A DNA stretch of 36,863 nucleotides from Syntrophomonadaceae bacterium (GTDB lineage Bacteria; Bacillota; Dethiobacteria; DTU022; PWGO01). Positions 11,915 to 34,067 of the stretch are shown piece after piece. Made by a program: the position numbers and the translations under genes. Location of the stretch: contig PWGO01000133.1 in assembly GCA_003554525.1 (NCBI GenBank), positions 1 through 36,863 on the forward strand, in the 5' to 3' direction. Position 1 is the first letter of the stretch, and each line of letters starts with the position of its first letter. The notes beneath the pieces are model-generated. The model had not been told where the DNA came from. It saw only the letters and a list, made by a program, of their open reading frames with translations, and did not search any database.

Positions 11915-13846
11915 ATGGGGGAGAATATCAATAAAAGCAGTACAATTGACAGCTACAAAAGCTATACTTTTAACATTTTATCACACGTAACCCCGTTCAA
12001 CTACCTTGAAAAATCACAACTGGAAGAGCTATATTCCCAGTGCGAAATTAAAACTTTTCCGGTGGGGGATTTTATTTTTAAGCAGGGGGAAAGGTCACAC
12101 CAGTCACTGTACATCATACTGGAAGGAAGAGCCCGTATCTTAATGGAAGACGAAAAAGAAAGCATTAAAACGGCAGGGGAAAGAGCAGTTGCGGATTTTT
12201 TTGGCGAAACTGTACTTTTAACCGGGGAAAATTACCCGGCTTCGGTCACAGTCTTGGAAAAAATGGTGTGCCTGGTAATACCCCGCACTGTTTTTGAAAA
12301 AATGCTTTCCTTCAACCAGCAGGCTTCCGAAAGTTTCACCCGTTTGCTACTGGTCCGCCTGAAAGAAATGTATTACCAGATTGGGGAGCAAAAGAAAAGA
12401 GATATCTTATACGAAGAGCCGCTGCACAAAAAGGTAGAACAGGTAATGATCTCTCCCGTAATTACCTGCCTTCCGGGGCAGACCATAAAAAGGACCGCGC
12501 AACAAATGAGCCGGAATGGTATTACTTCTGTAGTAGTTGTAGCCCCCAACGGGAAGCCAGTGGGGATAGTTACCGATAAAGATCTGGTAGCCAAAGTGCT
12601 GGCTGAAGAAGCAGATGCCCCCCGCTACGTATTTCAAATCATGAGCCGCAATTTAAAAACTGTAAAAAGCAGCGACTTTGCATATCAGGCTTTCCTGGTA
12701 ATGGTTAAACACCATATAAACCACGTAATAATTGAGGAAAAGGGGCAGCTCCAGGGTATAGTAACCATGAAAGATCTGATCAAATCACGCGACTGGGGCA
12801 CCCTTTCTGCAGTTAATTCCATTGAAAATCACCGGGATATAGAATCTCTTGCCGAAACCATGGAGGAAATAGACCAGGTGCAACACGCCCTGCTTTTAGA
12901 AAGAGCCTATGCACGGGAAATCAGCGAGCTGGTAACTGAATTCTACGACCGGGTCACCCGCAAGATCTTGAGCCTGACCGAAGAACAAATGCAGGAGGAA
13001 GGATGGGGAAAACCCCCTGCGGGATACTGCTGGATCAGCATGGGAAGCTCGGGCCGCAGAGAGCAGTATTCCCGCACGGACCAGGATAACGGTATTATAT
13101 TTGAAGCTTCGGATACAAAGGAAAAAGACGAAGCCGCCCGTTCTTACTTTTTGAAGCTGGGAGAAAAAACTGTTAAAGGCCTGGAAACCTGCGGGTTCAG
13201 GAGGTGCCTGGGGGGTGTCATGGCCGAAAACTCCGCGTGGTGTAAAACCCTCCCGGAATGGAAAGACACGGTACACGATTGGATAAACCGGCTGGATCCG
13301 GATCATATACGCAACATGACTATATTCCTTGATTTCCGCTGCGTTTACGGCAGGGAGGATCTGGGCCAGCTTCTTAGAGACGAAGTAAGCCGGGCTTTCA
13401 AGAACTCCCCCGACACCCTGTACTTCCTGGCCAAGGACGACCTGCAACACAGAGTTCCCCTCAATTTTTTCCGGCAGATAATCACAGAAAAAGATGGAAA
13501 AATAAATTTAAAGAGTACCGCCACTGTCCATCTTATAGACTGCGTACGAATCTTTTGCCTGCGAGAGGGCATTAAGGAAACTTCTACTTTCCAGCGAATA
13601 AACCAGCTGCAAAAGAAAAACGTGTTTAACCAGGACCTGGCAGATACCATAAAGGAAGCGTTCGAAACTCTTTTAATGCTGCGTATAAAAAATTATTTGG
13701 CCTGCCTCAAGCAAGGACGGGAACCAGATAACTACATCTACCCTGCAAGGTTAAGCAAGAAAGAACGTACCAGGCTTAAAAAAGCCATGCAAGCCACCAA
13801 CTGGCTGCAGACCCTGGTATCTCAAAATATTGTAATGGGTTTATAG
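11915..13846 (+). CDS. cNMP-binding / CBS / DUF294 nucleotidyltransferase-like signalling protein
   Basis: A 643-aa cytosolic multidomain protein. Residues about 20-150 form a cyclic-nucleotide-binding (Crp-type) fold with GDFIFKQGE and FFGE. Residues about 170-290 hold a CBS pair (VEQVMISPVITC and VFQIMSRNLKTVK; each ends with a GIVT-D/M-KDL signature) that likely senses adenine nucleotides. Residues about 320-460 form a DUF294 nucleotidyltransferase-like domain with GSSGRREQYSRTDQDNGII, the GlnD-like G-S...D-x-D pattern, and the rest is DUF294_C. Such proteins are thought to adjust a partner in response to energy status, often beside a transporter or DNA polymerase III-like exonuclease. Neither is adjacent here. 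ATG 11915 follows GGAGG by 8 nt. Its 3' end overlaps the convergent lipoprotein gene by 6 nt. Confidence 0.88.
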   Translation: MGENINKSSTIDSYKSYTFNILSHVTPFNYLEKSQLEELYSQCEIKTFPVGDFIFKQGERSHQSLYIILEGRARILMEDEKESIKTAGERAVADFFGETVLLTGENYPASVTVLEKMVCLVIPRTVFEKMLSFNQQASESFTRLLLVRLKEMYYQIGEQKKRDILYEEPLHKKVEQVMISPVITCLPGQTIKRTAQQMSRNGITSVVVVAPNGKPVGIVTDKDLVAKVLAEEADAPRYVFQIMSRNLKTVKSSDFAYQAFLVMVKHHINHVIIEEKGQLQGIVTMKDLIKSRDWGTLSAVNSIENHRDIESLAETMEEIDQVQHALLLERAYAREISELVTEFYDRVTRKILSLTEEQMQEEGWGKPPAGYCWISMGSSGRREQYSRTDQDNGIIFEASDTKEKDEAARSYFLKLGEKTVKGLETCGFRRCLGGVMAENSAWCKTLPEWKDTVHDWINRLDPDHIRNMTIFLDFRCVYGREDLGQLLRDEVSRAFKNSPDTLYFLAKDDLQHRVPLNFFRQIITEKDGKINLKSTATVHLIDCVRIFCLREGIKETSTFQRINQLQKKNVFNQDLADTIKEAFETLLMLRIKNYLACLKQGREPDNYIYPARLSKKERTRLKKAMQATNWLQTLVSQNIVMGL

Positions 13847-14509
13847 CTCTTCAGATTCTTTTTCTTTGTTGTTTCCCTTACTTTTTATCACAAAAAACGC
13901 TGCCCCGCCTAAAATGGCAACTATTAATACTGCCAGCACGGCAATTACCGTGTAGTCAAGGTGCTCGTACCCGGCACTTATCTCGCTTTCTTCCAATAAA
14001 TCAATTTCCCAGCTAACAGTTTTGCCATCTACCTTATCAGCATTTTGGAAGGAAGGCTCCCGTGGAAGCTCCAGAAAAAGTTCCACATTTGTGTTTTTAT
14101 CCACATCGTCCTCCTCCTGACGATCGATAAACACTTCCACCAGCCCTTCTTCTTTTAGCAGGTTCCCTCCCATTTCTATATCAATTTCACCCCTGAACTG
14201 CTCTTCACCCGGGACAGTTATTTCTTCCAGCTGCTCATAGTGTTCATAATGCCGGGATATTTTTACGCCTTCCTGGCCTTCCCTGGTTATTTTTTCTGTC
14301 TCGTATCCGTCCTTTTCAGCTTCTTCTTTTATTCCTGACCAGATATCCCCAAACTGCTCCCCTTCATCAGTATCCCTTAAAAAATACTGTTCCACATCTA
14401 CACTGCCATCCTCGCAGAGAGAAAGCCTTATTTCAAAATCATCCACACAACCCACCAGCATCATTGAAACTACACAAACCAGGACAAAGCCCACCGCTTT
14501 TATTTTCAC
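13841..14509 (-). CDS. LppM/DUF3153-like lipoprotein with C-terminal membrane anchor
   Basis: A 222-aa predicted lipoprotein. The signal ends in a lipobox-like MLVGC (Cys at about residue 21), the extracytoplasmic part (about 22-185) is acidic and beta-rich, and a transmembrane helix (about 187-210, YTVIAVLAVLIVAILGGAAFFVI) is followed by a short basic then acidic tail. This lipoprotein-plus-anchor layout, with EIRLSLCEDGSVDVEQ after the lipobox, recalls LppM/DUF3153 proteins. Function unknown. Start GTG 14509 has GGGAGAG upstream. An extended -10 promoter lies at 14568-14576. Confidence 0.7.
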   Translation of the reverse strand: MKIKAVGFVLVCVVSMMLVGCVDDFEIRLSLCEDGSVDVEQYFLRDTDEGEQFGDIWSGIKEEAEKDGYETEKITREGQEGVKISRHYEHYEQLEEITVPGEEQFRGEIDIEMGGNLLKEEGLVEVFIDRQEEDDVDKNTNVELFLELPREPSFQNADKVDGKTVSWEIDLLEESEISAGYEHLDYTVIAVLAVLIVAILGGAAFFVIKSKGNNKEKESEEL

Positions 14510-14576: not shown

Positions 14577-14724
14577 TAATAACCCTTAAGCTGGTTAATT
14601 TTTTTTACCGGACTGGAGGACCTCCCGGTGGTAGAACCCACGCACCTACATTGTTGCCTCGATATCTTCCTCCTCCCTGGTGCTAATCCAGTTACACACT
14701 TGACACCGGAGGTAAAGCTACACT

Positions 14725-14758
14725 CTTTGGGTTATTTTATACTTTGGGTTATTTTATA
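14725..14758 (+). repeat. 17-bp tandem duplication
   Basis: CTTTGGGTTATTTTATA occurs twice head to tail inside the inverted-repeat element. Confidence 0.9.
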
Positions 14759-14835
14759 CTTCCTTGCCGCGGGCTTCTTTCTTCCCCCCACCGGGGGGGA
14801 AGATTAAGATGGGGGGGATACCTTATTGGAGGTTG

Positions 14836-14890
14836 GAAGTTAGAGGTCAGAGGTCAGATTTCAGAGGTCGGAAGTCAGAAGTCAGAAGTA
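14836..14890 (+). repeat. Degenerate heptamer repeats (AGAGGTC / AGAAGTC)
   Basis: A run of imperfect 7-mers of the form AG(A/G)(G/A)GTC, such as AGAGGTC AGAGGTC AGATTTC AGAGGTC GGAAGTC AGAAGTC AGAAGT, on the purine-rich strand. Non-coding, inside the inverted-repeat element. Confidence 0.85.
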
Positions 14891-14980
14891 AAAGACAAGA
14901 AAAGCAAAAAGACTCTTGCCGGTGTCAAGTGTGTAACTGGGTTAGCCTGGTGGGGGAGGAATTAAAGGTGGTAGGTATCT

Positions 14981-15030
14981 TGCCTCTTGCTTCTTGCTTC
15001 TTGCTTCTTGCCTCTTGCCTCTTGCCTCTT
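14981..15030 (+). repeat. Heptamer tandem repeats (TTGCCTC / TTGCTTC)
   Basis: About seven head-to-tail copies alternating TTGCCTC and TTGCTTC on the pyrimidine-rich strand, just right of the inverted-repeat element. Period 7 again. Confidence 0.9.
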
Positions 15031-15176
15031 GCTTCTTACTCAATGCTCGCTGCCGGTATAAACACAACCCTTTTGCTTACTGCACCACAGGACAAAGCTC
15101 GTTGCTCTTTCGTCTGGTATTAAGTAGCCCCCACATTGGCGTCACGACATCTTCTCCCCCCCCTTGAGTTAAAGCG

Positions 15177-16115
15177 TTACTTTATAAGCATGGATAAAAG
15201 TGCTTTCTGGGCATGCAGCCGGTTTTCGGCCTGATCAAAAACCACCGACTGCTCAGACTCGATGACCTGGTCAGTTATCTCTTCACCCCGATGCGCGGGG
15301 AGACAGTGCATGACCACCGCCCCCGGTTCGGCTTTATCCAGGAGGGCCCGGTTCAACTGGTAAGGCGCAAAGTGTTTTCGCTTTTCTTCTTTTTCGCTTT
15401 CCTGGCCCATGCTGGTCCAGACATCTGTATATACTACTTCGCAACCTTTTACCGCTTGTTCCGGGTCTTCCATCAAGACCAGTTCTCCTCCACTGGACCG
15501 GGCTTCTCGCCTGGCCAGTTCTACAATATCGCCATCCGGGGCATAGCCAGGAGGGTGGGCTACCCGGAGCTGCAAACCCAGTTTGCTGCATCCCAACATA
15601 AGGGAATGAGCCACGTTGTTCCCGTCCCCCAGGTACACAACTTTACGTTCCGGCGCCAGTTCGCCGCATTTTTCCCATACAGACATTAAATCCGCCAGGG
15701 CCTGGCAGGGATGAAATCTATCGGTAAGGCCGTTAATAACCGGAACAGAAGCATAACGGGCCAGCTCTTCTACTTCTTCCTGATCAAAAGTACGGATCAT
15801 GATACCGTCCACATAGCGTGAGAGTGTCCGGGCGGTATCTTTAACTGGTTCTCCTCGTCCCATCTGCAAATCGCCGACACTCAGGAAAAGCCCCCTGCCT
15901 CCCAGCTGTTCCATACCTACTTCAAAGGAAAGACGGGTGCGGGTGGATGATTTTTGAAATATCATAGCCAGGGTTCTACCCTCCAGGAAATTATGGGGCT
16001 GCCCTTCCTTCTGCTTATGCTTAAGCTTGAAACCCAGCTCCAATATGCTCCGTATTTCTTCCCCGCTGTAGTCAACCAGGCTCAGCAAGTTACGCCCCAC
16101 CAATTCTCGTGTCAT
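15177..16115 (-). CDS. argF: Ornithine carbamoyltransferase
   Basis: A 312-aa enzyme, typical family length, that joins carbamoyl phosphate and ornithine to make citrulline. The carbamoyl-phosphate loop SSTRTRLSFE is near residue 55, HPCQALADL near 135 and the ornithine-binding HCLPAHRGEEI near 272, so the specificity is for ornithine and not aspartate. ATG 16115 lies 6 nt after the argD stop, and it is the last gene of argCJBDF. No argG, argH or carAB follows; the repeat-rich patch does. Confidence 0.96.
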   Translation of the reverse strand: MTRELVGRNLLSLVDYSGEEIRSILELGFKLKHKQKEGQPHNFLEGRTLAMIFQKSSTRTRLSFEVGMEQLGGRGLFLSVGDLQMGRGEPVKDTARTLSRYVDGIMIRTFDQEEVEELARYASVPVINGLTDRFHPCQALADLMSVWEKCGELAPERKVVYLGDGNNVAHSLMLGCSKLGLQLRVAHPPGYAPDGDIVELARREARSSGGELVLMEDPEQAVKGCEVVYTDVWTSMGQESEKEEKRKHFAPYQLNRALLDKAEPGAVVMHCLPAHRGEEITDQVIESEQSVVFDQAENRLHAQKALLSMLIK

Positions 16116-20834: not shown

Positions 20835-20860
20835 GCCCCCCATCCCAAAGGACGAGAGGC
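20835..20860 (-). terminator. T-box terminator hairpin
   Basis: On the minus strand GCCTCTCGTCC, loop TTTG, GGATGGGGGGC gives an 11-bp stem with three G-U pairs. It uses the TCTCGTCC strand that also forms the antiterminator, so the two folds exclude each other. The tract after it (TTAAATTGATT) is only weakly U-rich. Confidence 0.55.
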
Positions 20861-21160
20861 ATTCTCGCGTTACCACCTTTCTTGCTCCCGAGCCCGGGAG
20901 CCACCTCAGAGCGCCCGGCCATGCGGCACGGACGAAACTTTGATAACGGAAAGCCCGAACCCGCCTACCCACAACCTGCATGGAAAAATACTTCCTGTTA
21001 TTACAGATAGCTTCAGCGGATTTCCTCCGGGGTGCGCTTCACCTGACGGCTCATGACCCGCCGGGCTTCCACCATCCCCGGCTCGCTAATATCAACTCCG
21101 TCAAACTACTCTCCCCATCTCAGGATATTAACCTATAAGTTTTACAAAAATACAACTCAT
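20835..21160 (-). ncRNA. T-box leader, arginine type
   Basis: A leader RNA that binds uncharged tRNA and then allows transcription of argCJBDF. The minus strand shows a typical Stem I with GGGGAGAGTAG, the distal AGCGAGCCGGGGATGGTGG and the specifier region GGTGAAGCGCACCCCGGAG. By anchoring on the usual purine after the specifier and the CCCC-GGAG after that, the specifier reads CGC (Arg), which agrees with the operon. The alternative in-phase reading GCG (Ala) is not followed by a purine. The T-box itself is AAAGGTGGTAACGCGAGA, a one-base variant of the usual GGTGGNACCGCG, with TGGT able to pair with a tRNA ending ACCA. Stem III is GGCTCCCGGGCTCGGGAGC. Confidence 0.9.
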
Positions 21161-33740: not shown

Positions 33741-33843
33741 AACGGTTCGCTCTATTATATTATTAAACTGCCGCTCCAGTAAAGTAAAGGTGAATGAGTT
33801 AGTTGTTAAAACAAAATAAAGCGGTGTTTTTGATTATAGAAGG

Positions 33844-34006
33844 CACTCGTTAGGTGAGGCTCCTAAATGAACACAGGCTGCTGCCCAGAAACGTCCAGAG
33901 ACGCCAACGGGTATAACAGGCAAGATCGGATTAAGGTCTGCCTAAAGCAGCTGATTCTTGCAAGTCAAGAATCTACGTCATTTAGTGCCAAATCCAGGAC
34001 GAGGAG
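33844..34006 (+). ncRNA. M-box (ykoK) magnesium riboswitch
   Basis: A clear M-box aptamer: CTCGTTAGGTGAGGCTCCTA, then ACACAGGCTGCTGCCCAGAA, ACGTCCAGAGACGCCAACGG, GATCGGATTAAGG, and AATCCAGGACGAG closing P1. It binds Mg2+ and, when saturated, favours the downstream terminator (34068-34092). It sits upstream of mgtE, the usual target, in the right orientation. An 8-bp stem GGTATATT/AATATACC lies between aptamer and terminator (34021-34050). Confidence 0.95.
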
Positions 34007-34067
34007 TCGCTGCAGTATGCGGTATATTGAATATTATATTAAATATACCGGGCAAACAGTTGATGCT

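What the first reader, a model, noticed from the sequence alone, without database searches (positions are those of the whole stretch)
14669..14959. MITE-like element bounded by 41-bp inverted arms
A 22-bp exact inverted match, extended to 41 bp with partial identity, bounds a 291-bp non-coding stretch that also holds a tandem 17-mer, a G/C hairpin and heptamer repeats. This looks like a non-autonomous mobile element or the relic of one, placed between two transcription units.
Basis: partly seen in the sequence, partly recalled or inferred. Interest (0 to 1): 0.5.

Follow-up and report, generated by a model that had tools for sequence, protein, structure and literature searches.

The report
Miniature transposon inserted in palindromic repeat
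A 263-base piece of non-coding DNA in an uncultured Bacillota genome is a small 'parasite of a parasite': it carries the end sequences of a Tn5-like jumping gene and sits, with a short duplication of its target, in the loop of an older palindromic repeat; it is a well-documented example of a known kind of element.

Summary
The inverted arms (14667-14709/14919-14961, 43 nt, 84%) are two things added together: 27-bp terminal inverted repeats (26/27 identical) and the two halves of a palindromic target. The mobile unit is 14683-14945 (263 bp), flanked by a 7-bp direct repeat CCTGGTG. Removing it and one repeat copy gives a sequence found unbroken (82-97% identical) at eight other places in the same genome: paralogous empty sites. 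The 16-base core of the ends occurs 57 times in the genome (reversed control 0), the interior in about 35 places. In related genomes the same kind of ends bound a 2.4-kb insertion sequence whose transposase is Tn5/IS50-type (IS4 family) with an N-terminal DruA domain; the copy with both flanks readable has a 9-bp duplication in a C-run/G-run palindrome. So this is a non-autonomous derivative of that IS, moved in trans, favouring palindrome loops. No such transposase was found in the window's own fragmented assembly. The interior also occurs inside a second MITE family (ends GTAACTACTCA, 8-bp duplications) linked to an IS66-type IS. Ordinary in kind; the family, the DruA link and the nesting are new.

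The parts
14642..14682 (.). left half of the older palindromic intergenic repeat that served as target (read on the minus strand: CACCAGGGAGGAGGAAGATATCGAGG...)
   Evidence: matches the flank of many other copies and of the eight empty sites
14676..14682 (.). target-site duplication, copy 1: CCTGGTG
   Evidence: direct repeat with 14946-14952; single in the empty sites
14683..14945 (.). the inserted miniature element (263 bp)
   Evidence: absent from eight paralogous empty sites
14683..14709 (+). left terminal inverted repeat CTAATCCAGTTACACACTTGACACCGG
   Evidence: 26/27 identical to the right one; core shared with IS ends of relatives
14725..14758 (+). tandem 17-mer CTTTGGGTTATTTTATA x2, private to this copy
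   Evidence: no tandem in the other 24 distinct occurrences among the fetched loci
14743..14858 (+). conserved interior: GCCGCGGGC, C-run/G-run hairpin and start of heptamers, present in about 35 places, also inside the GTAACTACTCA-bounded MITEs
14826..14890 (+). heptamer array (GARGTYA-type) inside the element
   Evidence: similar heptamers in relatives
14919..14945 (-). right terminal inverted repeat (CTAACCCAGTTACACACTTGACACCGG on the minus strand)
14946..14952 (.). target-site duplication, copy 2: CCTGGTG
14946..14975 (.). right half of the target palindrome (CCTGGTGGGGGAGGAATTAAAGGTGG...)
14977..15039 (+). second heptamer array (CTTGCYT-type), part of the older repeat
   Evidence: present in the two best empty sites
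15040..15166 (.). further repeat module, 94% identical over 128 nt to a copy on contig C190

Best explanation
[quoted passage not shown] A Tn5/IS50-type (IS4-family) transposase with an N-terminal DruA domain, supplied in trans, is thought to have bound its 27-bp terminal repeats and joined it into the loop of a C-run/G-run palindrome of an older, multi-copy intergenic repeat; gap repair then duplicated the loop (CCTGGTG). Shown: multi-copy ends and interior, empty sites, direct repeat, end core shared with complete ISs of that kind, and palindrome targets for those ISs. Inferred: that this transposase moved it, the chemistry, and that the interior (hairpin plus heptamers) is passive cargo shared with other MITEs by recombination or nested insertion.
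For: Empty sites: flanks joined minus one CCTGGTG match eight distinct places of the same genome across the junction, two of them over 98-100 aligned columns at 84-86%. Copies: ACACACTTGACACCGG with at most 1 mismatch 57 times, control 0; interior in about 35 places, up to 95% identical. Full copies with both ends: L002, L003, and shorter or longer variants L104, L116, L100, L107. Autonomous relatives: in G063 a 2,380-bp IS with ends GGTGATCCGGGTACACACTTGACACCGG / GGTGATCTTTACCCACACATAACACCGG, 9-bp duplication CTTTCTAAA inside CCCCCCTTTCTAAAGGGGGG, and a 759-aa protein with DruA (6e-34), Tnp_DNA_bind (5e-21) and Dimer_Tnp_Tn5 (2e-20). The Dethiobacter IS (G075, L178/L202) has an end GGGCTAACCCTTACCCACACTTGACACCGG, 25 of 30 columns equal to the window's right end. 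All eight IS ends with flank read in G016, G059, G061 and G063 follow a C-run half-palindrome. In the window's genome 34 of 49 distinct ends have a run of at least 4 C in the 28 outward bases, against 12% of random 28-mers from the same loci.
Against: No DruA, Tn5-type DNA-binding domain or IS protein match in the window's own assembly (the DruA profile rang in none of the control genomes, but the protein search did find the IS elsewhere). The direct repeat is 7 bp here but 9 bp in the IS of G063; other full copies in the genome lack a clean duplication. The ends are similar, not identical, to those of the ISs (19-25 of 28-30 columns). C-run flanks are not independent, because composite copies may have spread or recombined as units.
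Confidence: 0.85

Rival explanations
1. The arms are the stem of a conserved structured RNA or a regulatory hairpin kept for argF or its neighbour.
For: Both strands fold far better than shuffles (z about -8).
Against: The folding follows from the inverted ends, as in any TIR element; no Rfam family matches here; the repeat occurs at dozens of other places; empty sites exist; promoter-like and terminator-like matches are at about chance level.
Confidence: 0.04
2. It is a REP/BIME-type palindromic repeat spread by a TnpA-REP (Y1) transposase or by recombination only, without TIR-directed transposition.
For: The region is a mosaic of palindromes and tandem heptamers with many module breakpoints, like BIMEs.
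Against: A discrete 263-bp unit with 26/27 identical ends and a direct repeat is missing from the empty sites, and the ends resemble those of DDE-transposase ISs. The surrounding target repeat itself may still be of this kind; Y1 transposases were not searched for.
Confidence: 0.07
3. The element was moved by the IS66-type IS whose MITEs (ends GTAACTACTCA) share the interior.
For: The same interior lies inside GTAACTACTCA-bounded elements with 8-bp duplications (L010, L029); GTAACTACTCA occurs 106 times.
Against: The window copy is not bounded by GTAACTACTCA; its ends are of the other type.
Confidence: 0.03

Closest known systems
MITEs derived from IS4-family (IS50/Tn5-group) insertion sequences
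   Same: short, non-coding, ends like those of an autonomous IS of that group, direct repeat of the target, multi-copy and intergenic
   Different: the partner transposase carries an N-terminal DruA domain; direct repeat is 7 bp here versus 9 bp for the IS; no partner found in the same assembly
ISRm22 (IS4 family, Sinorhizobium meliloti) and other REP-targeting ISs (IS1397, ISKpn1, IS621, ISPpu9/10; PMC1525189)
   Same: insertion into palindromic intergenic repeats; ISRm22 had all its copies in REPs according to that paper
   Different: here the inserted thing is a MITE and its IS relatives have a DruA domain; target palindromes are C-run/G-run hairpins; no sequence comparison with ISRm22 was made
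BrickBuilt MITE of Porphyromonas gingivalis (PMC4596501)
   Same: a MITE that holds a tandem-repeat array, intergenic, many copies
   Different: 23-bp units there, heptamers here; different element and host
IS1272 of Staphylococcus aureus (PMC5678879)
   Same: inverted-repeat structures as targets
   Different: IS1272 replaces the inverted repeat and leaves no duplication; here the loop is duplicated
Bacterial interspersed mosaic elements (BIMEs)
   Same: palindromic modules in changing combinations between genes
   Different: here two TIR-defined MITE families are nested in the mosaic

Membership tests
MITE (non-autonomous TIR element) | terminal inverted repeats | tested here: met
   27 bp, 26/27; exact core absent in shuffles
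MITE (non-autonomous TIR element) | short, no transposase gene | tested here: met
   263 bp; only a mechanical 119-aa ORF crosses it
MITE (non-autonomous TIR element) | multiple copies in the genome | tested here: met
MITE (non-autonomous TIR element) | target duplication and empty sites | tested here: met
   CCTGGTG x2; eight paralogous empty sites
MITE (non-autonomous TIR element) | orthologous empty site in a relative | tested here: inconclusive
   no relative read shares the neighbourhood
derivative of the DruA-fused Tn5/IS50-type IS | ends shared with a complete IS | tested here: met
   shared CACACTTGACACCGG, 19-25 of 28-30 columns over the whole ends
derivative of the DruA-fused Tn5/IS50-type IS | 9-bp target duplication | tested here: inconclusive
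   7 bp in the window; up to 9 possible if terminal G's belong to the target; 9 bp in the IS of G063
derivative of the DruA-fused Tn5/IS50-type IS | transposase present in the same genome | tested here: not met
   the assembly is in 190 contigs that often end in these repeats. This is not required of a MITE, which can outlive its partner, but it lowers the claim
derivative of the DruA-fused Tn5/IS50-type IS | transposase moves it | not testable with these tools
   needs a transposition assay
IS66-derived MITE (GTAACTACTCA ends) | GTAACTACTCA ends at the window element | tested here: not met
   ends are CTAATCCAG.../CTAACCCAG...
REP/BIME mobilised by TnpA-REP | Y1 transposase in the genome | not tested
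structured RNA | match to an Rfam family | tested here: not met
   only an M-box and a T-box elsewhere in the window

The most novel reading that the evidence does not exclude
The DruA domain is a target-choosing part of transposons: ISs with a Tn5/IS50-type transposase fused to DruA, and the MITEs that borrow it, insert preferentially into the loops of intergenic hairpins across several phyla, and DruA in the Druantia defence system would be a relative with a comparable DNA-structure-sensing task.
Probability: 0.2. Interest if true: 0.65.

Novelty: new member of a known kind. Interest (0 to 1): 0.36.

Why it matters
The locus gives a clean, nested example of how bacterial intergenic mosaics are built: palindromic repeat first, then a MITE dropped into its loop. 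It links a large MITE family to a transposase type, helps explain why this genome assembly is so fragmented, and shows a DruA domain, known from the Druantia defence system, as part of two unrelated kinds of IS, which makes a role for DruA in transposition directly testable.

Tried and rejected
Exact 22-mer in the species genome collection: none (records very near the window's own may be left out there). IS66 transposase as partner of the window element: the ends do not fit, although IS66 proved to be the likely partner of the sister family. Apparent absence of IS66 from the genome was traced at least once to assembly collapse: contig C31 begins inside an IS66-like C-terminus. Orthologous empty site next to argF: no LppM-like neighbour in the 14 relatives' loci read. 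Structured RNA: no Rfam hit. Promoter/terminator role: only chance-level matches. The 2.7-kb pair of GTAACTACTCA on contig C91 was suspected to be an autonomous element but encloses what read as a cold-shock-type protein and a DEAD-box helicase. Literature on DruA/DUF4338 with transposases: no paper describing the fusion found in the held library, which does not show that there is none.

Full report
What is there. The window holds an inverted pair 14667-14709 / 14919-14961 (43 nt, 84%) with a 22-bp exact part that is unique in the window and far beyond chance. The stretch lies in a 667-bp gap between a carbamoyltransferase of the arginine cluster (15177-16115, minus) and an LppM-domain protein (13841-14509, minus). 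Most of that gap, 14642-15166, is made of sequences repeated elsewhere in the same genome.

It is multi-copy. A search of the window's genome (2.3 Mb, 190 contigs) with 14640-14990 gave 130 matching pieces at some 40 places. The best cover nearly the whole element (L002, 77%; L003, 76%); many others carry only the interior (query 103-219, up to 95% identical) or only the ends. The core of the ends, ACACACTTGACACCGG, occurs 57 times with at most one mismatch and never in the reversed control. The exact 22-mer was found in no other species genome scanned.

It is an insertion. The flanks read ...CTTCCTCCTCCCTGGTG | CTAATCCAGTTACACACTTGACACCGG ... CCGGTGTCAAGTGTGTAACTGGGTTAG | CCTGGTGGGGGAGGAATTAAAGGTGG. 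Joining the flanks with one CCTGGTG gives a palindromic unit that is present, unbroken, at eight other distinct places of the genome; the two best match over 98-100 columns at 84-86%, from the GCACC..GGTGC hairpin on one side to the CTTGCYT heptamers on the other. The terminal repeats proper are 27 bp, 26 identical.

Whose ends are they? In same-order genomes G059 and G016 the same end core stands at contig ends and leads into the start of a reading frame. Following that frame gave complete or near-complete ISs: G063 (2,380 bp, 759 aa), G061 (85% identical, runs off the contig), G075 (Dethiobacter sp., 73%), G169 (Firmicutes UBA5473, 61-63%), and named contigs from other phyla at 44-51%. The protein has an N-terminal DruA domain (PF14236), the Tn5-type DNA-binding domain (PF14706) and the Tn5 dimerisation domain (PF02281). 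The G063 copy has a 9-bp duplication, CTTTCTAAA, inside CCCCCCTTTCTAAAGGGGGG. The Dethiobacter copy ends in GGGCTAACCCTTACCCACACTTGACACCGG, very like the window's CTAACCCAGTTACACACTTGACACCGG. That G063, G061, G075 and G169 are the named records L200, L201, L202 and L207 is inferred from equal contig lengths.

Target choice. All eight IS ends read with flank in G016, G059, G061 and G063 stand just past a run of C that forms half of a palindrome. The Aerophobetes copy L209 has C-run/G-run flanks and the Marinimicrobia copy L206 lies in TCCGCC-GGCT-GGCGGA, though neither shows a clean 9-bp duplication; L203 shows no such palindrome. In the window's genome 34 of 49 distinct ends have at least four C in a row in the outward 28 bases, against 12% of random 28-mers of the same loci; these are not independent, since copies may have moved together. 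IS4-family insertion into REP palindromes is known for ISRm22 (PMC1525189).

A second family in the same mosaic. The same interior is found inside elements bounded by GTAACTACTCA (106 exact copies, control 0) with 8-bp duplications such as ATTATGTG (L010) and ATTTTATT (L029); elements with these ends but other interiors show TATAATTT, TTTAAATT and AAAAAACC. In G033 this end bounds an element with an IS66-type transposase (1.7e-50) next to a DruA protein. One contig of the window's genome starts in what looks like the C-terminus of such a transposase. So two unrelated transposase types, both linked to DruA, appear to feed MITEs into one intergenic mosaic.

What is inferred. That the DruA-Tn5-type transposase moved the window element rests on shared ends and target type; no such gene was found in its own assembly, which is often broken at these repeats. 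The role of the interior (hairpin and heptamers) is unknown; I take it as passive cargo exchanged by nesting and recombination. The tandem 17-mer is private to this copy among those read. The strong predicted folding follows from the inverted ends, and no RNA family matches.

Verdict. It is a new member of a known kind. The unusual part is the repeated link between DruA, two IS types and palindrome targets, which is a lead, not a result.

Noticed in passing
L145, L144, L178, L179 and L171: DruA domain (PF14236) is fused to Tn5/IS50-type transposases in one IS kind and encoded beside an IS66-type transposase in another; no description of this was found in the held papers.
   Followed up: partly
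genome-wide in G000; also G027 (52 ends) and G040 (45 ends): A second MITE family with ends GTAACTACTCA and 8-bp duplications, about 50-350 bp, many with a GGGGACGGTTC...GAACCGTCCCC hairpin inside; patchy across the order.
   Followed up: partly
L045 (G000 contig C31, bases 1-120): Contig starts inside an IS66-like transposase C-terminus bounded by GTAACTACTCA, so an autonomous copy is probably present but collapsed in the assembly.
   Followed up: partly
many contig ends of G000 (e.g. C13, C31, C47, C67, C78): Contigs often end about 100-120 bp inside these repeats, which would help explain the fragmentation into 190 pieces.
   Followed up: no
window 33839-34013 (+) and 20845-21130 (-): An M-box (magnesium) riboswitch, and a T-box leader just upstream of the arginine biosynthesis cluster.
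   Followed up: no
window 14977-15166: A second heptamer array and a further 128-bp repeat module (94% identical to contig C190) lie between the element and argF.
   Followed up: partly
L075 (G000 contig C83:5517-5662): A GTAACTACTCA-type MITE inserted inside a heptamer array with duplication GAGGTAAG/GAGGCAAG: the heptamer arrays are themselves targets.
   Followed up: no
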